From Leptothermofonsia sichuanensis E412 (GTDB lineage: Bacteria > Cyanobacteriota > Cyanobacteriia > Leptolyngbyales > Leptolyngbyaceae): a stretch of DNA of 64,000 bases. This document shows, piece after piece, positions 8,627-35,998 of this stretch. The translations under genes were made by a program, and so were the position numbers. The first letter of the stretch is position 1, and each line of letters begins with the position of its first letter. The stretch covers positions 5,084,001-5,148,000 of the forward strand of contig NZ_CP072600.1 in NCBI RefSeq assembly GCF_019891175.1, given 5' to 3'. The notes under the pieces were generated by a model. That model worked only from the letters and a program-made list of their open reading frames with translations, was not told the origin of the DNA and made no database searches.

Positions 8627-11281
8627 ATGGTTCCCACCTCCATACCCATCAGGCTTTTAATCAGCATTGCAGGACTTCCCTTGCTGGCAGGTACGGGGCT
8701 GGCACAGGAACTCCGACCCTTCGCTTCCAGTCTTCCGGTTCCAGGTCATCCAGCTCAAATCCTGCTGCAATCGGCGACTCCGTCTACTGCATCCCAGGAG
8801 CGCGTCCATCAGGGGCAGGTGCTTTACGAGGCAGGACGGTATGCAGACGCTGTTCAGCTTTTGCAGCAAGCCGTTCAGGACTATCGATCCCAGGCAGATG
8901 ATCTCAGACAGGCGGCCACCTTGAGTAACCTTTCACTGGCGTACCAGCAGCTTGGTGCCTGGGAAAAAGCTCGGCAGGCCGTGGAAACGAGTCTGTCATT
9001 GCTGGGGGGGCAACTGGCAACGGGCGATCGCCAGCAGATGTCGGTGATGGCCCAAACCCTGGATATTCAGGGACGACTGCAACTGGAAACGGGGCAGGCA
9101 GAGCAGGCGTTAGCGACCTGGCAACAGTCAACCGCCCTTTATGCTAGAGCGGGAGACTGGGCAGGGGAAGTGCGGAGTCGTCTTAACCAGGCGCAAGCCT
9201 GGCAGGCAATGGGATTCTATCGCCGATTGCTGGATAAACTGACGGAACTCAGGCAGAGTTTGCATCCCCAGCCTGACTCCCTGGTGAAAGCGGTGAGTTT
9301 GCGATCGCTGGGGAATGCGCTGCAACTGATTGGTGATCTGGAGCAGTCTCGCCAGGTCCTGGAACAAAGTCTGAGCCTCTCCCGTAAACTGCAATCTACC
9401 GCTGAAGAGAGTGCAGCGCTGTTTAGCCTGGGTAATACTGCCCGCGCCCAACAGGAGATGGAGTCAGCGATCGCCTTTTATCGACAGGCTGCCCAACGCT
9501 CTCCTTCCCCCCTCTTGCAGGCACAAGCCCACTTGAACTGGCTCAGTCTGTTAGTGCAGTCAAATCGACGAACAGAGGCAGAGGCCCTGCTGCCCCAGAC
9601 AATGACATTGGTTGCAGCCCTGCCTCCCAGCCGTTCTGCCATCTATGCCCGGATCAGTCTGGCAGACACGATGACCAGACTCTGGAGCCAGGAAGCAGAT
9701 TCAACCCGGAATGGAAATTCAACCCGGAACTATGAGCAGGTGGCAACATTCCTTGCAGCAACCGTGCGGCAGGCACAGCATTTGGGCGATCGCCGGGCGG
9801 AGTCCTTTGTCCTGGGTAACTTAGGTGGCTTGTATGAGCAAACCCGCCAGTGGGCAGAGGCACAACGATTGACAGAACAAGCTTTGCTGCTGGCGCAATC
9901 CGTGAATGCGGGGGATATTTCCTATCGCTGGCAGTGGCAACTTGGGCGTTTACTGAAGCACCAGGGGAATATTCCTGGGGCTACCGCTGCTTACGAGGCG
10001 GCCATCAACACACTCCAGTCCCTTCGCAGTGATCTGGTGGCTGTTAACCGGGATGTGCAGTTTACCTTTCGGGACAGCATTGAACCCGTCTATCGCCAGA
10101 CAGTAGAACTGCTATTGTCCTCCAATCAGGGAAACCCAGGGGAAGCGACGTTAGACAGAGTCCGGCGCTTAATTGAATCCCTCCAACTGGCTGAATTGGA
10201 TAATTTCTTCCGGGAAGCCTGCCTGAATGCCCGGTCCGTTGTACTGGATCAGGTGGTGGATCAGGATAATCCGACAGCGGCTGTCTTTTATCCCATCCTG
10301 CTGGAGAGCCAGTTAGCCGTTATCCTTAAAATTCCCCGCCAACCCCTGCGCTATTATGCGGTTCCCCTACCCCAGGCAACGGTAGAAGATACCCTGGCTC
10401 AGTTACAACAGGCGATGAAAGAACCAGATGCCGCCCTGAAGCTGCGATCGCTCTCCCAACAGGTCTATCGCTGGCTGATTCAGCCGGTCGAAACGGATCT
10501 GCAACGAAGTAAGGTGGACACCTTAGTCTTTGTCCAGGATGGGCTGCTGCGTAACATTCCAATGGCGGCACTGTTTGATGGCCATCAATACCTGGTTGAA
10601 AAGTATGCCGTTGCCCTCAGCCCTGGACTGCAACTCCTGGCCCCTCAACCCCTGGTGCGGACAAAACTGACTGCCCTCACTGCCGGGTTGACCCAACCCC
10701 CCCCTGCCTATTCCCAATTTGCCCCCCTACCAGAGGTCAGAGCAGAACTGAACCTGATTGAGCAGACCGGGATCAACACCACAACCCTTCTGGATCAGGC
10801 ATTCACCAGTAAAGCCCTGGAGCAACAGATCAGTGCACTCCCGTTTCAGATTGTCCATCTGGCAACCCACGGTCAGTTCAGTTCTCAGGCAAAGGACACC
10901 TACATCCTGGCAGCAGATGGACCCATCCAGGTCAGCCAGTTTGATGGACTGCTGCGGAAGCGTAGCCAGTCTGCCTCAGAGGCAATTGAATTATTGGTTC
11001 TGAGTGCCTGTCAGACGGCTGCTGGCGATAATCGAGCAACGCTGGGATTGGCCGGTATTGCCATCAAAGCCGGTGCCCGCAGTACAGTGGCATCTCTCTG
11101 GCATATCGACGATCGCTCCACCGCAATCTTTATTGGCGAATTTTACCGCGAACTGGCAACTGCAAACGTCACCAAGGTCGAAGCCCTGCGCCGCGCTCAA
11201 CTGGTGCTGTTAAAGGATTATCCCCAATACAGCCGCCCCAGCTACTGGGCACCCTATGTGCTCATCGGCAACTGGCTGTAG
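8627..11281 (+). CDS. Secreted TPR-CHAT domain protein
   Basis: An 884-residue protein with a signal peptide (residues 1-26, hydrophobic core then GTGLAQE). About ten TPR-like helical repeats follow (roughly 55-470), then a C-terminal CHAT domain (about 590-884). CHAT is a caspase-like fold: the catalytic pair is visible as His748 in HLATHGQ and Cys795 in LSACQTAAG, followed by the usual GLAGIAIKAGA..V..LW.IDD pattern. TPRs probably bind a partner that controls proteolysis. Export would place it in the periplasm or outside the cell, unlike the cytosolic CHAT proteases of defence systems. ATG 8627 follows AAGGGGG. Downstream on the same strand is a short frame that looks like a decayed DUF928 gene, the usual CHAT companion in cyanobacteria. 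Substrate unknown. Confidence 0.9.
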   Translation: MVPTSIPIRLLISIAGLPLLAGTGLAQELRPFASSLPVPGHPAQILLQSATPSTASQERVHQGQVLYEAGRYADAVQLLQQAVQDYRSQADDLRQAATLSNLSLAYQQLGAWEKARQAVETSLSLLGGQLATGDRQQMSVMAQTLDIQGRLQLETGQAEQALATWQQSTALYARAGDWAGEVRSRLNQAQAWQAMGFYRRLLDKLTELRQSLHPQPDSLVKAVSLRSLGNALQLIGDLEQSRQVLEQSLSLSRKLQSTAEESAALFSLGNTARAQQEMESAIAFYRQAAQRSPSPLLQAQAHLNWLSLLVQSNRRTEAEALLPQTMTLVAALPPSRSAIYARISLADTMTRLWSQEADSTRNGNSTRNYEQVATFLAATVRQAQHLGDRRAESFVLGNLGGLYEQTRQWAEAQRLTEQALLLAQSVNAGDISYRWQWQLGRLLKHQGNIPGATAAYEAAINTLQSLRSDLVAVNRDVQFTFRDSIEPVYRQTVELLLSSNQGNPGEATLDRVRRLIESLQLAELDNFFREACLNARSVVLDQVVDQDNPTAAVFYPILLESQLAVILKIPRQPLRYYAVPLPQATVEDTLAQLQQAMKEPDAALKLRSLSQQVYRWLIQPVETDLQRSKVDTLVFVQDGLLRNIPMAALFDGHQYLVEKYAVALSPGLQLLAPQPLVRTKLTALTAGLTQPPPAYSQFAPLPEVRAELNLIEQTGINTTTLLDQAFTSKALEQQISALPFQIVHLATHGQFSSQAKDTYILAADGPIQVSQFDGLLRKRSQSASEAIELLVLSACQTAAGDNRATLGLAGIAIKAGARSTVASLWHIDDRSTAIFIGEFYRELATANVTKVEALRRAQLVLLKDYPQYSRPSYWAPYVLIGNWL

Positions 11282-27309: not shown

Positions 27310-27368
27310 GAATTAAGCCAGATGCGATCGCTCAGATCTTCAACTTCTCGAAGAAGTTGGAGATCTTT
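27310..27368. repeat. 59-bp hairpin repeat, copy 2
   Basis: It matches 11445-11503 at 57 of 59 bases, including the HIP1 octamer and the CAACTTCT/AGAAGTTG hairpin. Here the hairpin is followed by a T run (AGATCTTTTTT), so on the plus strand it looks like a terminator. It lies 64 bases beyond the DUF928 stop. Confidence 0.85.
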
Positions 27369-27431: not shown

Positions 27432-28256
27432 CTACCGCTTTTTTCCTTTGATATCCGCAGTTTGTAGGGCTTTGCAGCATTCAGTCAGCGGCGCATCAGC
27501 CACGTCTGATAGTTGGATTGATTCCAGCAGACTATGCCAATCGGCCGTCAGGGCAGGATCCTCAGGTTTGGCGGAGCGCAGGTCTGCCAGGGTCGTAACC
27601 GTGTCGTACCAGAGGTGATTTTCGGCATAGAGAGCCACTTTTTGCAGGGGGGTGGCAGATTCGATCTGCTTCTGCAATGCCCTATCTGGGGTGACCCGCA
27701 GCACAACCCCTTCTACCTGTATGGGAACGCCCTGCTGCTTTTGGGCACAGTAGACTTTGAAGTACCAGTGGTAAACCTGTCCAGCTTCGAGGGCGGGAAC
27801 AGTTGATGGCAGTGTAACCCTGACAATTCCTGGTTTTGTTGGAAGGTCTACGCCAGTCCGATAAACGTCATTGCCATCTTCATCCTGGAGGGCAAACTCG
27901 ACCGGAAACCCCAGGCGGTTGTCGTAGGGCATGTAAAACCAGAAAGTGGGGTGGGATGCACTGGTCAACCCCCATACTCTGGCAATGGTTTCTGGTCCGA
28001 TCGCCCGGATCAGGGTTTCCTCCTTAAAAGGCACCAAGGCGGTTAGTTCTGGGTTGGTTTTGGGGCAAACACCCCGACTGGCTCCTCCCCGATAGCGTCC
28101 GGCAGGAATCCCTCTGGAGGGAGGGGCGGGCATTCTGAACTGTAAGGAACCAGCTGTTTTTGCCTGGGCAGTCAACCCCAGCGGGGAACTGGCAGCACTC
28201 AACAGGGTGAAGACAACCGCAACGGTTAGTTTGAACGGTTGAAAGGGGCATTTCAT
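27432..28256 (-). CDS. DUF928 protein, exported
   Basis: A 274-residue protein of the cyanobacterial DUF928 family. A signal peptide ends near AQAKTAG (about residue 33). Next comes the family hallmark PSRGIPAGRYRGGASRG with a Cys, then LTALVP and a beta-sandwich-like core (HPTFWFYMPYD, GIVRVTLP, YHWYFKVYC). The C-terminus is helical. The function is unknown. ATG 28256 has AGGAG ahead and starts only 4 bases beyond the CHAT-CHASE2 stop, so the two are translationally coupled. Last gene of the four-gene unit from 32446. I infer a periplasmic partner of the CHAT-CHASE2 sensor. Confidence 0.88.
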   Translation of the reverse strand: MKCPFQPFKLTVAVVFTLLSAASSPLGLTAQAKTAGSLQFRMPAPPSRGIPAGRYRGGASRGVCPKTNPELTALVPFKEETLIRAIGPETIARVWGLTSASHPTFWFYMPYDNRLGFPVEFALQDEDGNDVYRTGVDLPTKPGIVRVTLPSTVPALEAGQVYHWYFKVYCAQKQQGVPIQVEGVVLRVTPDRALQKQIESATPLQKVALYAENHLWYDTVTTLADLRSAKPEDPALTADWHSLLESIQLSDVADAPLTECCKALQTADIKGKKR

Positions 28257-28260
28257 AGAA

Positions 28261-30675
28261 CTACTCCTGATGAAGGGCAGGATCGGGCGATCGCAGGGGG
28301 CGACCCTGTGGGTAGCGTCCCATCTGGTAAAGTCCTGCTGTGCTGGCTGTCGCTGCGATTGCCAGAATGGGTGGCAGCAATGGCACCCACCCTCCCTGGG
28401 TCAGCACACCAAAGCACACCAGATAGAGCACACTAGCAGATACAACCACAACCACGACCATTCGGGAAACAGCCTGATTGAAGGATCTGCTGCGCAGCCA
28501 TACCCACCCGCACAATAGCCCACTAGTGAGAGCCCAGAACCCGATCCAGGCAATGTCTGCGCCCACTGGCCAGACCCACAGCAGCGGACGCTGATCTAAA
28601 ACCGCACTGAGGATTTGACTGGTCATTTCCGCCTGCACCACCACACCTGCCTTCTTGTCAGCCGGACCCGTGCCATAGGGGGTAGACCAGTAATCCCCAA
28701 AGCTTCTGGCAGTCACCCCAATCACCACAATTCGATCCTTAACAGCGTCGGCATTAATTTGCCCACTCAAAACCTGGCTCAGGCTGACCTGGTTCACCGG
28801 GCGGCGGCTTGCCCGGTAATTGAGCAGGATCTGGTGGCCCCAGGCATCAATCCCCTGATAGCCACCTGTGCGGGAGTGGATAGCAGGGAAGACGGTTTTG
28901 CCGAACTGCAAGTTTCCATTCTCCGTAAAGGCAGGCTCAATTCCTTCGGCTGCCAGGTAACGAGCCGCCAGATGCACATTAAAGGCATAGGGCGTGGTGC
29001 AAAGGGAAGCTGGTGGCACGTCCATAAACAACACCTGACGGCGAAGGACCCCATCCGGGTCTTCCAGAAAATCGCTAAACCCGACGCGATCGCCCGGCAC
29101 CTCTGGCGGCGGAGCAATTCCAACCACATTACTGTCCGGGTCACTCACCTTGCAGATGGCAATCAGCTTCCCATCCTGCTTCAGCCGCTCTGCCAGAAAT
29201 GGATGCTCTGGCTTGACCGGGTAATCCCGGTAAATATCCAGCCCAATCACTCGCGGTTGATAGCGGTCCAGTTGTTTGAGTAACTGGCTAAAGGCTCCAT
29301 CCGAAAGGGAACCCCGGTCTGGTTGGGGCTGCTTCTGGATATCCTCATCATCAATGGTGACCACCAGCAAACGAGAATCGGTGCCCTCCTCCGGTCGCAG
29401 CCGCATCAGTTGGTCAAATGCATGGAGTTCGACGGGTTGCAGCCATCCCAGATAGCGAACTCCCGTGATCAGGGCAGTGATGGCAAGACTGGTGGCGATC
29501 GCCCAGCGAAAGGGATGGGAAGGGTGAGGAGAGAGAGGAGAGGGAAGGGAGGGCGGAGCGGAAGGAGATACCCGGTTCCCGATAGCCGGTTCCCGGCTCC
29601 CCGTTAACTCTGCCCACGTTGGCGGCACCTCCGCCGGATTCTGATAGATCACAGGGAGCCAGGTAGCGCAGGGGAACTGGTCTTCGATTGCCTGCAACCG
29701 TTCTCGCGCCTGCCTGACTGCCTGGTAGAGGGGTTCACCGCTGGCAAAGGCTTGCAGGAAGTATTTCAAAAACGCCTGGGCTACCTGATCGGGTACCGGT
29801 TCGCGCATGACGATTACCTGGGGAATGTGCAGATCTGCCAGTTCCCGCGCCAGCCCCAATCCATCGCAGGAGTTGAAGATTGCCAGTTTTAAGCCTCGCT
29901 CCAGGGCTTTTTTAAGCGCATACCTCAACTGGCTGAAAGTCAGGCTGTCGGTTTGATTAATGTAAATTCGTCCAGTTTCCCCATTCTCCTGGCTGGAACT
30001 GTGTCCCGCAAAGAAGAGGATATCCCAGGGATGCTCCCAGAGGCGATCGCTGACCTGCTGACGGGATGGCTCCACCAGCAGCCGCACCGCCGCATCCGGT
30101 AAACTTTCCAGAAGTGCTCGGTCTGCCTGGGTATCAATGCCTTTGCTGTTGCCCAGAATGGCCAGAACGGAAACCGTTCCCGCTGGGGTTGGGATGGGAG
30201 CCACCCGGTCATAGACCGGAGCACTCAGGGCAAGCTCCGTATTGGGATAGCGCTCCAGCAGATCCCAGAGATGCCAGGGGAGTTTTTGCAACGCAGGGTC
30301 GGCAGTTTGCACGATCACCCGGATTGGATCGGAGGGGTGCAGTTTTTCCAGCCATTTTTCCCGCACAGGACGCAGGAATTCTGCCCGGAGCCAGGCATTG
30401 AGGCGATCGCGCAGTTGTTCTGCGGCTTGATGACAGTCCTGCACCAGTGACACATTCTTTTGCTGCCCATCGGGAGCCGAAAGCCGGGAACGCAGCCCCA
30501 GTCCCCGATAGGTTGATTGCCATTGCTGGTAGACCCCCAGCAGCTCAGGCTCAGCCGGTAGCGTTCCTGTGATCTCCGTCGTTGGGCGGGCATTCTCTTC
30601 CCCAACCTGAAGCGTCACAGGGAACCCCTGGGCAAAACTACCTTCACCAATTTTCAGGATGACTAATTTACTCAC
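28261..30675 (-). CDS. CHAT-CHASE2 membrane protein
   Basis: About 804 residues. The N-terminal ~350 residues are a CHAT domain with His225 (FFAGHSSS) and Cys270 (AIFNSCDGLGLA) as the likely caspase-type dyad. A Ser/Pro linker (about 360-388) and a membrane segment (391-410) follow. Then comes a CHASE2 extracytoplasmic sensor domain (about 415-700, LLVVTIDDEDIQ..., FVFMDVPPA-like core, VVIGVTARSFGDYWSTP) and three C-terminal membrane segments. This predicts an external signal read by CHASE2 and an internal protease output. I chose GTG 30675, preceded by GGAGG, over an upstream ATG that adds low-complexity sequence. The linker DNA (29516-29600) resembles the intergenic simple-sequence tracts. 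Confidence 0.9.
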   Translation of the reverse strand: MSKLVILKIGEGSFAQGFPVTLQVGEENARPTTEITGTLPAEPELLGVYQQWQSTYRGLGLRSRLSAPDGQQKNVSLVQDCHQAAEQLRDRLNAWLRAEFLRPVREKWLEKLHPSDPIRVIVQTADPALQKLPWHLWDLLERYPNTELALSAPVYDRVAPIPTPAGTVSVLAILGNSKGIDTQADRALLESLPDAAVRLLVEPSRQQVSDRLWEHPWDILFFAGHSSSQENGETGRIYINQTDSLTFSQLRYALKKALERGLKLAIFNSCDGLGLARELADLHIPQVIVMREPVPDQVAQAFLKYFLQAFASGEPLYQAVRQARERLQAIEDQFPCATWLPVIYQNPAEVPPTWAELTGSREPAIGNRVSPSAPPSLPSPLSPHPSHPFRWAIATSLAITALITGVRYLGWLQPVELHAFDQLMRLRPEEGTDSRLLVVTIDDEDIQKQPQPDRGSLSDGAFSQLLKQLDRYQPRVIGLDIYRDYPVKPEHPFLAERLKQDGKLIAICKVSDPDSNVVGIAPPPEVPGDRVGFSDFLEDPDGVLRRQVLFMDVPPASLCTTPYAFNVHLAARYLAAEGIEPAFTENGNLQFGKTVFPAIHSRTGGYQGIDAWGHQILLNYRASRRPVNQVSLSQVLSGQINADAVKDRIVVIGVTARSFGDYWSTPYGTGPADKKAGVVVQAEMTSQILSAVLDQRPLLWVWPVGADIAWIGFWALTSGLLCGWVWLRSRSFNQAVSRMVVVVVVSASVLYLVCFGVLTQGGWVPLLPPILAIAATASTAGLYQMGRYPQGRPLRSPDPALHQE

Positions 30676-30780
30676 GGTTCCTCCAGGGAGGGGAAAAGGA
30701 AGGGGAGAAAGGCAAAAGGCAGGGGGAAGCGTTGATGAGACGAAAAGGTGAGAGTTTTGATCACTCCTCACTCCTCACTC

Positions 30781-31773
30781 CTAAATCACAAACGCTTCCA
30801 CCACCCTCACTTCACCCAGCGCTACCTGGACACTAAAAACTTCGCCCGGAGTGCCGCTGAATTGTAATTGGATAAAGTTGTCTATTGGTCTTGATTCCGC
30901 TTCCAGGAAAGTGGTTCCGGTTTCATCCAGGACAATCAGTTGGACACCGGCTGGCAGTTGAGGCTGGCTGATAGGGTGTAGCTGTAGTTGAATGTCGATG
31001 GGTGAATCAGAAGTTTCTGCTGTTGTCTGGATCGTAACAATCAGAATGACGGATGTTTCACCCGGTTGCCCTCCCAGATGCAGCAATTTCAGCCGCCGGA
31101 TCCCCGTTTGTACATCCCGGAAGGCGATCGCATCCTCGCCCCGAAAGGCATAGGCGGGAACAAATTCTGGCTGGTTTAGCAAAGAATCGATGGTTTGCCA
31201 GCCCGCTTCAACCACCCCTTCAAACCACTGGCTCAGGTTAATGCGAGGGGCAGGTGTGGGTTGAGGGCTGGGTTGGGCAACGGTGGACTGCCTCAGTTGG
31301 AACAGATGATCAATCAGGTCTTCGGGCGATCGCAACTGGTTCAGAGGCAATTCTTCTACGGCGGCAGTGGGAACAAATCCCAACAGTTTAGCTTCCTGGA
31401 AGTTATCTGCCACTTCCACCACAACATAGCCCACTCGTTCTTGCCAGACTTCAGGTGGAATGGGGCAGGTCTGAGCCTGGGCATCAACTGGGCGGCATTC
31501 CAACTGTCCAATCCCCGGCAGGATCAGGTCAGCCACATCCGCACAGAGGCGCATCACCGGATTCCAACTGTCGCTGGCATCCCGATCAGTGGGAACCCCC
31601 ATCATTTGCAAATAATCATTGACCACCCACACTGCCAGAGTGTTGCGGCGCACCTGTTCAGCTTTGACAGGCGTGGGTTGCGCCCGGGCAAATTGTTCGG
31701 CAATTTCGCGAGCCGCCTGGGCGATCGGCAAAGGTAGCGAAAATTCATCAGTCCCATAGGTACGGTAAGTCAT
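30781..31773 (-). CDS. DUF1822 family protein
   Basis: A 330-residue soluble protein of the cyanobacterial DUF1822 family. N-terminal FSLPLPIAQAAREIAEQFA and LAVWVVNDYLQMMGVPTD are typical. The middle has EVADNFQEAKLLGFVPT and the C-terminal ~110 residues look beta-rich. No catalytic motif, signal peptide or membrane segment is visible. ATG 31773 lies 22 bases after the sigma-like gene stop, with GGAAGGA ahead, so they are co-transcribed. DUF1822 genes commonly accompany such sigma-like factors and CHASE2 or CHAT genes in cyanobacteria. The function is unknown; a regulator of the sigma-like protein is a reasonable guess. Confidence 0.88.
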   Translation of the reverse strand: MTYRTYGTDEFSLPLPIAQAAREIAEQFARAQPTPVKAEQVRRNTLAVWVVNDYLQMMGVPTDRDASDSWNPVMRLCADVADLILPGIGQLECRPVDAQAQTCPIPPEVWQERVGYVVVEVADNFQEAKLLGFVPTAAVEELPLNQLRSPEDLIDHLFQLRQSTVAQPSPQPTPAPRINLSQWFEGVVEAGWQTIDSLLNQPEFVPAYAFRGEDAIAFRDVQTGIRRLKLLHLGGQPGETSVILIVTIQTTAETSDSPIDIQLQLHPISQPQLPAGVQLIVLDETGTTFLEAESRPIDNFIQLQFSGTPGEVFSVQVALGEVRVVEAFVI

Positions 31774-31795
31774 AGTTGGGAGTCCTTCCTGTTCT

Positions 31796-32446
31796 TTAGA
31801 TATATCCTTGTGACTCGCCAAATTTACGCAAACGGGGCATACACTGCCGTTGATAGAAGCTACTCAACGTTGACACAGTTAGTCCAAACTCCTCTGCCAG
31901 TTCCTTCCAACTGGTTTCCGGGGGAAGTCGCCGCAAAATGAGTTCCCGGCAGTTGACCTGGGGATGTCCCTCAATATGGATACGCCGCAGCTCACCGCTG
32001 GCATCTGCCTCTACCCAGGCGCGCACCTCATCCAGAATGGGGGGCACATCGGGTCGGGCAGGCAGACTGTCCACGGGATCAAGCACATCGTTGGCGTCGC
32101 CAGAACGGGAACTGCGAACCTGGGGGGAGACAAGCTGGGCCTGCTGTTTCTGGGTCCTGTGATAAAAGTCTTGCAACCGCCGCCGCAAGTAGTAATTAAG
32201 CCAGGTAGTGACCGTGCTGCGATCCGGGTTATACCGTTCCCCCGTAGCGGCTTCACACAAATTCTGGCAAAAGTAAACCCATGTTTGCTGGAGCGCATCC
32301 TGATAGTAGGGAACATTTTCCTTCCAGAGCTTACCCGACACCATCCGAATAATCTGAGTCATGCGCTTCTGGCGATCGGGACTACCGGCAGGATGCTGAC
32401 AGGCATCCTCCACTAACTGGCGCAACTGTTGGTCCAGGTGACTCAC
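31796..32446 (-). CDS. Sigma-70-like factor (cyanobacterial, atypical)
   Basis: A 216-residue protein resembling ECF/group 3 sigma factors. The N-terminal half has a region-2-like segment (YYQDALQQTWVYFCQNL, STVTTWLNYYLRRRLQDFY). The C-terminal part has a helix-turn-helix like region 4 (SWKELAEEFGLTVSTLSSFYQRQCMPRLRKF). The linker is long and polar. Start GTG 32446 with GAGGG ahead. It is the first gene of a minus-strand unit with DUF1822, CHAT-CHASE2 and DUF928, so it may direct transcription of that unit or of a wider regulon (inference). Core-polymerase binding is not proven from sequence. Confidence 0.8.
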   Translation of the reverse strand: MSHLDQQLRQLVEDACQHPAGSPDRQKRMTQIIRMVSGKLWKENVPYYQDALQQTWVYFCQNLCEAATGERYNPDRSTVTTWLNYYLRRRLQDFYHRTQKQQAQLVSPQVRSSRSGDANDVLDPVDSLPARPDVPPILDEVRAWVEADASGELRRIHIEGHPQVNCRELILRRLPPETSWKELAEEFGLTVSTLSSFYQRQCMPRLRKFGESQGYI

Positions 32447-32686
32447 AATTCCCTCAGAGAAAATGGCTGATTTGTCGTAAGTATTGCGTTTACCTGCACG
32501 TTTGAGAAGTCCCCAGACAGGTAAAGCTTAAAAATGATACCGACTTATAGCGATTTTCAGATGAGTAAGCCGCAATTTCTGGGTGTTGGGTACTGGGTAC
32601 CGGGTATTGGGCGTGGCGGAATCGATTAGTAACCGCTGTAATATCGCTATACGATCTAAAATCGCAAACTCCAAATCCAAAATGAT

Positions 32687-32797: not shown

Positions 32798-32821
32798 AAA
32801 AAAAGGTGGGCACTGCCCACC
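32798..32821 (-). terminator. Rho-independent terminator of the ABC exporter gene
   Basis: GGTGGGCA/TGCCCACC is a perfect 8-bp stem around one base (32805-32821), followed on the minus strand by seven T. It is about 95 bases after the ABC exporter stop. Confidence 0.9.
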
Positions 32822-32916
32822 CTTATAGTTGCTCAGGAATCCAAACTTAACAGACCTGCGTATGGGCGGGGTTAACCCGACATCCTGGTCTGACAGGTTC
32901 CGGGGCTACCCCCTAC

Positions 32917-34728: not shown

Positions 34729-35269
34729 AATTCATCCTTCCAGGGAAAAATTGGCAGTAGAATCACTTGCCAGCGGCTGGTCAGCCTGATTGGGCAACCC
34801 ACCCAGCGATACTACGGAAGTAGTATTGTAATACAAATACAATTCTCCTGGGGAAATTCCAGATGGCTGGGAACTTTCTACGAACACAACGGCTCAATGA
34901 CTTCGTAAGGTTACTGTTAGCCCTGCGTCTGTTTTGTTTTGTCTTGATAAAGTCTCTGTAATTTCCCTGGGCGATCGCCCATATCCTCCGCTAGGCTGGC
35001 AACGACATGCCTGTATTGCTTACAGGCAAAATGGGTGGCATCTCTGTTGTGTAGTTTCTTTTGTGTAGTTTTTTTGGGGAGTTCCCTGAATTTGCGATCG
35101 CCCTGAACAGACTTTTCTCCGGAAGTCCCCTTCCACTTCACGGATAGAGAATTGTCAGGGCAGTCCAGCCCCCTTCCAGGCCATTTTGGGATAGCAGCCC
35201 TGTCACTTGCTATCGCTGCAAGCCTTTATTCGCCAATTTACTCACCGTTCCTGCCCATACGGGGAAATC
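34729..35269. other. Spacer between divergent ABC exporter and PEP-CTERM genes
   Basis: A 541-base spacer. It holds the operator-like palindrome at 34809-34834 and a short tandem repeat TTGTGTAGTTT at 35047-35072. A 74-codon minus frame at 34917-35141 has no good ribosome site and no recognisable features, so I do not call it a gene. Confidence 0.55.
34809..34834. promoter_or_regulatory. Operator-like palindromes upstream of the ABC exporter
   Basis: ATACTAC-GGAA-GTAGTAT (34809-34826) is a perfect 7-bp inverted repeat. It overlaps a second dyad, GTATTGTAATAC (34823-34834), next to TACAAATACAAT. The position about 80-120 bases ahead of the exporter start fits a repressor site. The regulator is unknown. 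Confidence 0.4.
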
Positions 35270-35998
35270 ATGATCAAGTCTGCGCTTAAAACCCTTTTTG
35301 TCACCACCCTGGGAACAACTGCCCTGAGCCTGACTGTGGCTATTGCACCCGGCTACGCCGCCAGAGTGACTTACGACTTTTCTATCGATGTTCCGACTGG
35401 TGATTACACGGGTACTTATAATGGCAGGTTTAGTTTTGACGATTCCCAATTTGCTGGAAGAGATCTTGAATTTGCCGCTCCTTCCACCGAAGCAGGTAGT
35501 CTGACTGTGGAATTTAACTTTCTGGGCAACGTGTTCACGGCTGCCAATGATTTAGACTTTCCTGAATTTCCTCGAGTCTATTTCTTTAATGGAGAACTGC
35601 TGGGACTGAGTTTTCTGGTTATGGCATCTGGCACAAACCCAGGCTTTTTGATTAATCCAAGAACGACGCCTGGATTTGAGGAAGGCTTATATGTCGGCAG
35701 TCCCAATCCCCTTAATGGCACACTTGTTAGTTCCGCTATCCGATATCGGCTTGCTGCCGGGGATCCCGATCCAGAACCCACGCCGACCCCGACTCCGACT
35801 CCGACTCCGACCCCGACTCCGACTCCGACCCCCACTCCCACTCCGTATCCCACTCCCACGCCCGACCCAGACGGACCAGTTGAAGCAATTCCAGAACCGT
35901 CAGAAATTGCAGGTACCCTGCTCGCCCTTGGTCTGCTGGGGCTGGGCTTAAAGATGCGGAGAAAATCAATTTCTGGGATCGATCAACGGGACTCGTGA
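35270..35998 (+). CDS. PEP-CTERM sorting-domain protein
   Basis: A 242-residue exported protein. A signal peptide (residues 1-~30, ends PGYAA) is followed by a beta-rich domain of about 140 residues (VTYDFSIDVPTGDYTGTYNG, FNFLGNVFTA). Then comes a Pro-Thr repeat of about 30 residues and a C-terminal PEP-CTERM signal: IPEPSEIAG, a hydrophobic helix, then KMRRK. PEP-CTERM proteins are processed by exosortase and are linked to extracellular polymers. No exosortase gene is in the window. I chose ATG 35270, which gives a clean signal peptide; the frame opens 63 bases earlier. Confidence 0.85.
   Translation: MIKSALKTLFVTTLGTTALSLTVAIAPGYAARVTYDFSIDVPTGDYTGTYNGRFSFDDSQFAGRDLEFAAPSTEAGSLTVEFNFLGNVFTAANDLDFPEFPRVYFFNGELLGLSFLVMASGTNPGFLINPRTTPGFEEGLYVGSPNPLNGTLVSSAIRYRLAAGDPDPEPTPTPTPTPTPTPTPTPTPTPTPYPTPTPDPDGPVEAIPEPSEIAGTLLALGLLGLGLKMRRKSISGIDQRDS
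35781..35862 (+). repeat. Tandem CCGACT repeat encoding Pro-Thr
   Basis: About 80 bases of 6-bp units (CCGACT, with CCGACC and CCCACT variants) within the PEP-CTERM gene encode roughly 14 Pro-Thr pairs. Such a stretch can change length by slippage in whole codon pairs. It makes an extended, likely glycosylated stalk before the sorting signal. Confidence 0.9.

What the first reader, a model, noticed from the sequence alone, without database searches (positions are those of the whole stretch)
27432..32446. Sigma-like factor, DUF1822, CHAT-CHASE2 and DUF928 as one signalling-protease unit
Four minus-strand genes with gaps of 22, 105 and 4 bases. The third has both an intracellular caspase-like CHAT domain (His225/Cys270 visible) and an external CHASE2 sensor. 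Its neighbours are an atypical sigma-like factor, a DUF1822 protein and an exported DUF928 protein. Known: CHAT peptidases act in programmed-death and defence systems such as TPR-CHAT with type III-E CRISPR and gasdermin activation. Inference: an outside signal may trigger CHAT cleavage of a target such as DUF1822 or the sigma-like protein, so changing transcription. I know of no experimental description of this set.
Basis: partly seen in the sequence, partly recalled or inferred. Interest (0 to 1): 0.72.

Follow-up and report, generated by a model that had tools for sequence, protein, structure and literature searches.

The report
Membrane sensor-protease operon with sigma factor
A cyanobacterial four-gene operon joins a transcription factor of the sigma type, a protein of unknown function, a membrane sensor fused to a caspase-like protease and an exported protein; the kind was predicted from genomes in 2021 but never tested, and the exported protein turns out to accompany this type of sensor generally.

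Summary
In detail: four minus-strand genes, gaps 22, 105 and 4 bases, CHAT dyad His225/Cys270. It is not chance. In 29 related genomes, 62 of 78 DUF1822 genes are followed by the same CHAT protein, 4 more by a C14 caspase. The CHAT His/Cys is present in 64 of 64 proteins covering it. Cognate pairs co-vary beyond any of 5,000 within-genome shuffles.

It is not unprecedented. Kaur et al. 2021 (PMC8195603) predicted "EACC2-caspase" proteins with variable C-termini (CHASE2 included) encoded with an ECF sigma factor and DUF1822. The window is a member of that predicted, untested kind.

New here: (1) DUF928, not in that paper's main text, goes with the CHASE2 sensor. It follows 35 of 46 CHASE2 versions and 0 of 7 without CHASE2; 38 of 55 DUF928 genes outside such units lie within 1.5 kb of a CHASE2 gene. 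(2) Sensor and protease modules swap, the sigma/DUF1822 pair stays. (3) A conserved element lies about 40 bases upstream of the sigma gene.

Best model: CHASE2 plus DUF928 sense the periplasm, CHAT is switched on, DUF1822 is cut or remodelled, and the sigma factor acts. The substrate is inferred, by analogy with Csx29/Csx30/CASP-sigma.

The parts
31796..32446 (-). Sigma-like factor, 216 aa: sigma2-like helices around aa 48-103, disordered linker aa 105-123, sigma4-like HTH at the C-terminus
   Evidence: TIGR02937 6e-6, below cut-off; AF2 model pLDDT 78.7; Foldseek best hits are ECF sigma factors; 37 of 44 strong relatives lie beside DUF1822
30781..31773 (-). DUF1822 protein, 330 aa: alpha+beta N-domain, flexible linkers, C-terminal beta-sandwich; proposed substrate / sigma regulator
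   Evidence: PF08852 4e-75; AF2 model pLDDT 81.8; fold search matches only the beta-sandwich
31108..31281 (-). DUF1822 aa 165-222: two low-confidence linkers (165-172, 203-222) flanking a conserved LSQW...GWQ segment; candidate protease-accessible stretch
   Evidence: pLDDT below 50 at 165-172 and 203-222; variable in length and sequence, no conserved site
28261..30675 (-). EACC2-like + CHAT + CHASE2 membrane sensor-protease, 804 aa, GTG start after GGAGGA
   Evidence: PF12770 8e-19 and PF05226 1.6e-65; candidate TM segments at aa 392-410, 698-716, 740-758, 764-782
30247..30675 (-). N-terminal constant domain of about 143 aa (EACC2-like by position and context)
   Evidence: HMM built from this segment finds 67 proteins, 66 of them with CHAT
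29500..30315 (-). CHAT peptidase domain; His225 codon 30003-30001, Cys270 codon 29868-29866
   Evidence: Pfam; dyad invariant in 64 of 64
28519..29478 (-). CHASE2 extracytoplasmic sensor domain
   Evidence: PF05226 1.6e-65
27432..28256 (-). DUF928 protein, 274 aa, hydrophobic N-terminal signal-peptide-like segment (aa 10-28); proposed periplasmic partner of CHASE2
   Evidence: PF06051 2e-63; hydropathy; CHASE2 linkage
32480..32508 (-). Candidate sigma-gene promoter element TTCTCAAA-N13-GCAATACT, its GCAATACT core about 40 nt upstream of the sigma start
   Evidence: Same element with unrelated spacer in L055 and L140; GYAATACT upstream of 50 of 110 sigma genes against about 0.01 expected per region
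32805..32822 (-). GC hairpin with T7 tail between the upstream ABC transporter gene and the unit: probable terminator of the transporter
   Evidence: terminator count in the region not above shuffles
27334..27366 (.). 15-bp hairpin downstream of the DUF928 gene, probable end of the unit; the T-run scored by the scan lies on the + strand

Best explanation
The four genes form one envelope-sensing pathway. The third protein is anchored in the inner membrane, with its CHAT protease inside the cell and CHASE2 outside; the exported DUF928 protein works with CHASE2 in the periplasm as ligand carrier, ligand or gate. A signal at CHASE2 switches on the CHAT Cys-His dyad. The most likely target is DUF1822, whose two folded domains are joined by flexible variable linkers; cutting or remodelling it frees or activates the sigma-like protein encoded just upstream, which then directs transcription, probably including its own gene. 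Shown: gene set, domains, conserved dyad, conserved order, module swapping, cognate co-variation, CHASE2-DUF928 linkage. Inferred: topology from hydropathy, protease activity, DUF1822 as substrate or anti-sigma, binding of core polymerase, the signal.
For: 62 of 78 DUF1822 loci followed by CHAT, 4 by a C14 caspase. Sensor slot can be CHASE2 or Peripla_BP_6. Dyad 64/64. Mantel correlations with within-genome shuffles: DUF1822-CHAT r 0.74, sigma-DUF1822 r 0.68, CHASE2-DUF928 r 0.80, none of 5,000 shuffles as high. DUF928 follows CHASE2 versions only: 35/46 against 0/7, Fisher p 2e-4. DUF928 beside CHASE2 proteins with other outputs: 38/55 within 1.5 kb, 34 on the same strand, examples with GGDEF, EAL or nucleotide cyclase. 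ECF-like fold of the sigma protein; a longer protein in the same slot, L061, passes the ECF cut-off with 88.6 bits. Precedents: Csx29 CHAT protease cleaves the sigma-factor inhibitor Csx30 (PMC10028731); HetF, a cyanobacterial protein whose NCBIfam model partly matches the window's CHAT region, can cleave the regulator PatU3 (PMC12288457).
Against: No cleavage, binding or transcription data exist. DUF1822 shows no structural match to a known anti-sigma factor and no conserved cut site. The window sigma protein is below the curated sigma-70 cut-off. In Nostocales-rich loci only 18 of 80 sigma orthologues are directly followed by DUF1822. Nine DUF1822 loci have no caspase-type gene within the stretch read. 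The genome shows no clear second copy of the promoter-like element.
Confidence: 0.5

Rival explanations
1. Autoproteolysis model (Kaur et al. 2021): the CHAT domain first cuts its own protein, releasing a cytoplasmic EACC2-CHAT part that signals to the sigma factor; DUF1822 is an adaptor, not a substrate.
For: Autopeptidase activation is proposed for this class (PMC8195603). CHAT and CHASE2 are joined by a low-complexity Pro/Ser-rich linker seen directly in the window protein (SAPPSLPSPLSPHPSHP before the first TM).
Against: DUF1822 is the most constant partner: it stays when the sensor, the sigma subtype or even the protease family changes.
Confidence: 0.2
2. The sigma-like protein itself is the substrate, or is not a functional sigma factor; DUF1822 holds it at the membrane protease and the output is degradation or release of a DNA-binding regulator.
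For: Weak sigma score; disordered linker aa 105-123 between its two domains.
Against: Fold search hits are overwhelmingly sigma factors; the slot in other units holds a clear ECF sigma (L061, 88.6 bits).
Confidence: 0.15
3. Anti-phage defence or programmed-death system in which the caspase-like protease kills the cell.
For: Related caspase-type systems of multicellular bacteria are read as conflict systems (PMC8195603); copy number varies from 0 to 17 DUF1822 hits per genome.
Against: No PADLOC match for any of the four proteins; neighbours look like housekeeping genes such as transketolase, porin and ABC transporter; a sensor outside the cell and a sigma factor fit envelope sensing better.
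Confidence: 0.1
4. Neighbours by chance or loose co-regulation, without a physical pathway.
For: Sigma orthologues stand apart from the rest in many Nostoc genomes.
Against: Conserved order in many genera, cognate co-variation inside genomes with several copies.
Confidence: 0.03

Closest known systems
EACC2-caspase systems with ECF sigma factor and DUF1822 (Kaur et al. 2021, PMC8195603; prediction only)
   Same: N-terminal constant domain plus caspase-type domain, variable C-terminus that can be CHASE2, ECF-like sigma gene, DUF1822 gene, proposed sensing-protease-transcription logic
   Different: DUF928 is not mentioned in that paper's main text; DUF1822 is called a TPR protein there, whereas the model here has no TPR array; C14-caspase replacement and CHASE2-DUF928 coupling are added here
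Craspase / CASP (Cas7-11, Csx29, Csx30, CASP-sigma)
   Same: CHAT peptidase, ECF-like sigma factor and a third protein in one locus; the protease controls transcription there
   Different: Membrane CHASE2 sensor instead of CRISPR RNA guide, no TPR in the protease; relation of DUF1822 to Csx30 was not tested directly
HetF-PatU3 of Anabaena
   Same: HetF can cleave a regulator in a cyanobacterium; its NCBIfam model gives a weak partial match over the window's CHAT region
   Different: HetF equivalog score 20 bits against a cut-off of 1200; no sigma factor, DUF1822 or DUF928
CHASE2 receptors with GGDEF, EAL, cyclase or kinase output (e.g. Dgc2 of Leptolyngbya, PMC10581220)
   Same: Same extracytoplasmic sensor domain; the same DUF928 companion is often found beside such proteins here
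   Different: Output here is a protease placed N-terminal to CHASE2

Membership tests
EACC2-caspase system | Constant N-terminal domain followed by caspase-type domain | tested here: inconclusive
   A constant ~143-aa N-domain precedes CHAT in 66 proteins, but no EACC2 profile was available to prove it is the same domain and its fold was not predicted
EACC2-caspase system | Variable C-terminus, extracellular or intracellular | tested here: met
   CHASE2 in most, Peripla_BP_6 in L054 and L116
EACC2-caspase system | ECF sigma factor and DUF1822 genes alongside | tested here: met
EACC2-caspase system | Autopeptidase activation | not testable with these tools
   No biochemistry available
CHAT peptidase (PF12770) | Score over the curated cut-off | tested here: met
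   68.6 bits against 24
CHAT peptidase (PF12770) | Catalytic His and Cys conserved | tested here: met
   64 of 64 covering sequences
ECF sigma factor | Curated sequence cut-off (TIGR02937) | tested here: not met
   25.9 bits against 42.9 for the window protein; another protein in the same slot passes, L061 with 88.6 bits
ECF sigma factor | Sigma2 + linker + sigma4 fold | tested here: inconclusive
   Best fold hits are ECF sigma factors (1or7 prob. 0.98), E 0.03, low overall TM-scores
Craspase (type III-E CRISPR) | TPR-CHAT protease | tested here: not met
   No TPR domain in the window protein; no PADLOC match
Craspase (type III-E CRISPR) | Cas7-11 and a CRISPR array in the locus | not tested
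   Flanking ORFs were read but no specific cas or CRISPR search was run
HetF | NCBIfam CellDiv_HetF equivalog cut-off | tested here: not met
   20.4 bits against 1200
Anti-sigma factor (for DUF1822) | Fold like a known anti-sigma domain, or binding to sigma | tested here: inconclusive
   PDB fold search matches only the generic beta-sandwich; binding not testable

The most novel reading that the evidence does not exclude
DUF928 is the general periplasmic partner of cyanobacterial CHASE2 receptors, and here it gates a transmembrane caspase-like protease that cuts DUF1822, an anti-sigma-like regulator, to release a sigma factor: a non-CRISPR, membrane-sensing counterpart of the Csx29/Csx30/CASP-sigma circuit with interchangeable sensors and proteases.
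Probability: 0.3. Interest if true: 0.8.

Novelty: new member of a known kind. Interest (0 to 1): 0.5.

Why it matters
The ligands of CHASE2 are unknown (PMC10581220), and I know of no tested function for DUF928 or DUF1822. If DUF928 is the CHASE2 partner, one biochemical assay could open a sensor family found in 19 places in this genome alone. If DUF1822 is cut to control a sigma factor, protease-controlled sigma switching by CHAT would not be a CRISPR peculiarity.

Tried and rejected
Looking for the window proteins in solved structures by sequence: nothing usable. Rfam on the window: nothing. Anti-phage library: nothing. Search for a regulon using the bipartite upstream element: one exact match, its own promoter, and four 2-mismatch matches against three in the reversed control, so no regulon claim. 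Consensus sigma-70 promoters: none in the region, shuffles give 3. Conserved cut site in DUF1822: none seen. The HetF primary paper was not held. Chance adjacency was rejected.
Full report
Observation. Starts consistent with the stated gaps are ATG 31773 for DUF1822 and GTG 30675 for the protease, the latter behind GGAGGA. Domain calls are solid for DUF1822, CHAT, CHASE2 and DUF928. The first protein is only weakly sigma-like by sequence, but an AlphaFold2 model built with 38 orthologues finds ECF sigma factors at nearly all top places of a PDB fold search, E. coli sigmaE with probability 0.98. E-values there are weak (0.02-0.4) and TM-scores low; a disordered linker between two domains may explain this. 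The window lies in a 6.43-Mb cyanobacterial genome whose closest named relative found is a Leptolyngbyaceae MAG.

Is it a unit? I took the DUF1822 hits of 29 related genomes (25 have the family), read the DNA around 80 stretches and annotated it with profiles started from the window's own proteins. Of 78 DUF1822 loci, 62 have a CHAT gene directly downstream on the same strand, 4 have a C14 orthocaspase there instead, 3 have CHAT elsewhere in the stretch, 9 have neither. From the other side, 37 of 44 strong sigma-like hits in these genomes adjoin DUF1822 (my count). The window's genome holds four DUF1822 units: the window; a complete second copy (L039); one with a long, 445-aa protein in the sigma slot, DUF1822, EACC2-CHAT-CHASE2 and a divergent exported-looking protein (L040); and one with a 658-aa sigma-like protein, DUF1822 and a C14 caspase (L041).

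Do the parts belong to each other? Many genomes hold several units, so partners can be shuffled within a genome. Distances of DUF1822 and EACC2-CHAT correlate with r 0.74, sigma and DUF1822 with 0.68, CHASE2 and DUF928 with 0.80; none of 5,000 within-genome shuffles reached any of these. For sigma-DUF1822 the largest shuffle (0.677) came close to the observed value (0.680), so that pair is the least secure.

The protease. The CHAT His and Cys are present in all 64 EACC2-CHAT proteins that cover them, within GHS and NSC motifs. In four loci a different caspase-type family (C14) takes the place. That points to proteolysis as the function that is kept.

The sensor and DUF928. Hydropathy gives candidate membrane segments at aa 392-410, 698-716, 740-758 and 764-782, which would put CHAT inside and CHASE2 outside (only the third is strong). 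In L054 and L116 a Peripla_BP_6 ligand-binding domain replaces CHASE2. DUF928 follows 35 of 46 CHASE2 versions and none of 7 without CHASE2 (Fisher p 2e-4); several of the 11 exceptions carry another small exported-looking protein in that place, which Pfam does not call DUF928. Outside such units, 38 of 55 sampled DUF928 genes lie within 1.5 kb of a CHASE2 gene, 34 on the same strand; in the window's own genome 8 of 11 do within 2.3 kb, against about 1.4% expected per gene. CHASE2 proteins checked there carry GGDEF, EAL or nucleotide-cyclase outputs. So DUF928 goes with the sensor, not with the protease. One earlier paper noted a single CHASE2-DUF928 neighbourhood, and cites a DUF928 protein (sll1891) as acid-stress responsive (PMC5587647). 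The 55 were drawn from the better-scoring DUF928 hits of a few genomes, so the fraction is an estimate.

DUF1822. The model shows a confident alpha+beta N-domain, low-confidence linkers at aa 165-172 and 203-222 around a conserved LSQW...GWQ motif, and a confident beta-sandwich. It has no TPR array, although PMC8195603 calls the family a TPR protein. Fold search matches only the beta-sandwich. Linker sequence and length vary and no cut site is conserved. In Csx30 too, no single residue was essential for cleavage, while loop size mattered (PMC10028731).

Regulation. The element TTCTCAAA-N13-GCAATACT lies upstream of the sigma gene in the window, L055 and L140 with unrelated spacers. GYAATACT occurs within 150 nt upstream of 50 of 110 sigma genes, mostly about 40 nt before the start, against about 0.01 expected per region. 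Most of these are related Nostoc sequences, so they are not independent. It may be an autoregulated promoter; no regulon was found.

Limits. Among the 80 loci of the genome scan, mostly Nostocales, the sigma orthologue is often unlinked: 18 are directly followed by DUF1822, 20 by an exported-looking TPR-CHAT gene, 6 by TamB, 3 by ShlB and 2 by an FHA-like protein, 29 by none of these, 2 reach a contig end. That again suggests an envelope or secretion theme but loosens the operon.

Mechanism. The best-supported reading is an envelope sensor-protease pathway ending in a sigma factor, with DUF1822 the likeliest substrate. The nearest tested circuit is Csx29/Csx30/CASP-sigma, where a CHAT protease cuts a sigma-factor inhibitor. 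The present system works like it in outline but is not a member: no TPR and no match in the defence library. By membership it fits the EACC2-caspase class predicted in 2021, with the reservation that the EACC2 domain could not be tested with its own profile.

Verdict. Real, conserved, mostly foreseen in a computational paper, experimentally open. The DUF928-CHASE2 link and the protease and sensor swaps are the new and readily testable parts.

Noticed in passing
L124-L138 and L219-L258 (own genome and relatives): DUF928 genes lie beside CHASE2 genes whatever the CHASE2 output (CHAT, GGDEF, EAL, nucleotide cyclase): 38 of 55 outside the units. Suggests a general CHASE2 partner.
   Followed up: partly
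L041:4316-11248, also L069, L099, L112: Units in which a C14 orthocaspase stands where CHAT normally follows DUF1822. The L041 caspase carries a tandem duplication of the stretch around its apparent catalytic Cys.
   Followed up: partly
L054:2208-4709, L116:7082-9577: EACC2-CHAT proteins with a Peripla_BP_6 ligand-binding domain in place of CHASE2, and no DUF928 gene.
   Followed up: partly
L164, L171, L173, L183, L193, L199, L208, L211, L216: In Nostocales relatives a ~900-aa TPR-CHAT protein with a signal-peptide-like start lies between the sigma-like gene and DUF1822.
   Followed up: partly
window 32480-32508 and upstream of 50 of 110 sigma genes: Conserved GYAATACT about 40 nt before the sigma start in Leptolyngbyaceae and Nostocaceae.
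   Followed up: partly
L119:5963-6643 (own genome near 5.68 Mb): A third sigma-like paralogue without DUF1822, next to a 252-aa protein with an N-terminal membrane segment and no Pfam family.
   Followed up: no
own genome 5.830-5.853 Mb (L039, L126): Cluster of CHAT, DUF928 and CHASE2 genes: the second complete unit, then a large exported-looking protein, TPR-CHAT, DUF928 and CHASE2-GGDEF genes.
   Followed up: no
window 8627-11281 (+): Another CHAT protein (about 885 aa) with a signal-peptide-like N-terminus lies in the same window.
   Followed up: no
window 35207-35998 (+): Exported-looking protein with a long Pro-Thr repeat and a C-terminal anchor like PEP-CTERM proteins.
   Followed up: no
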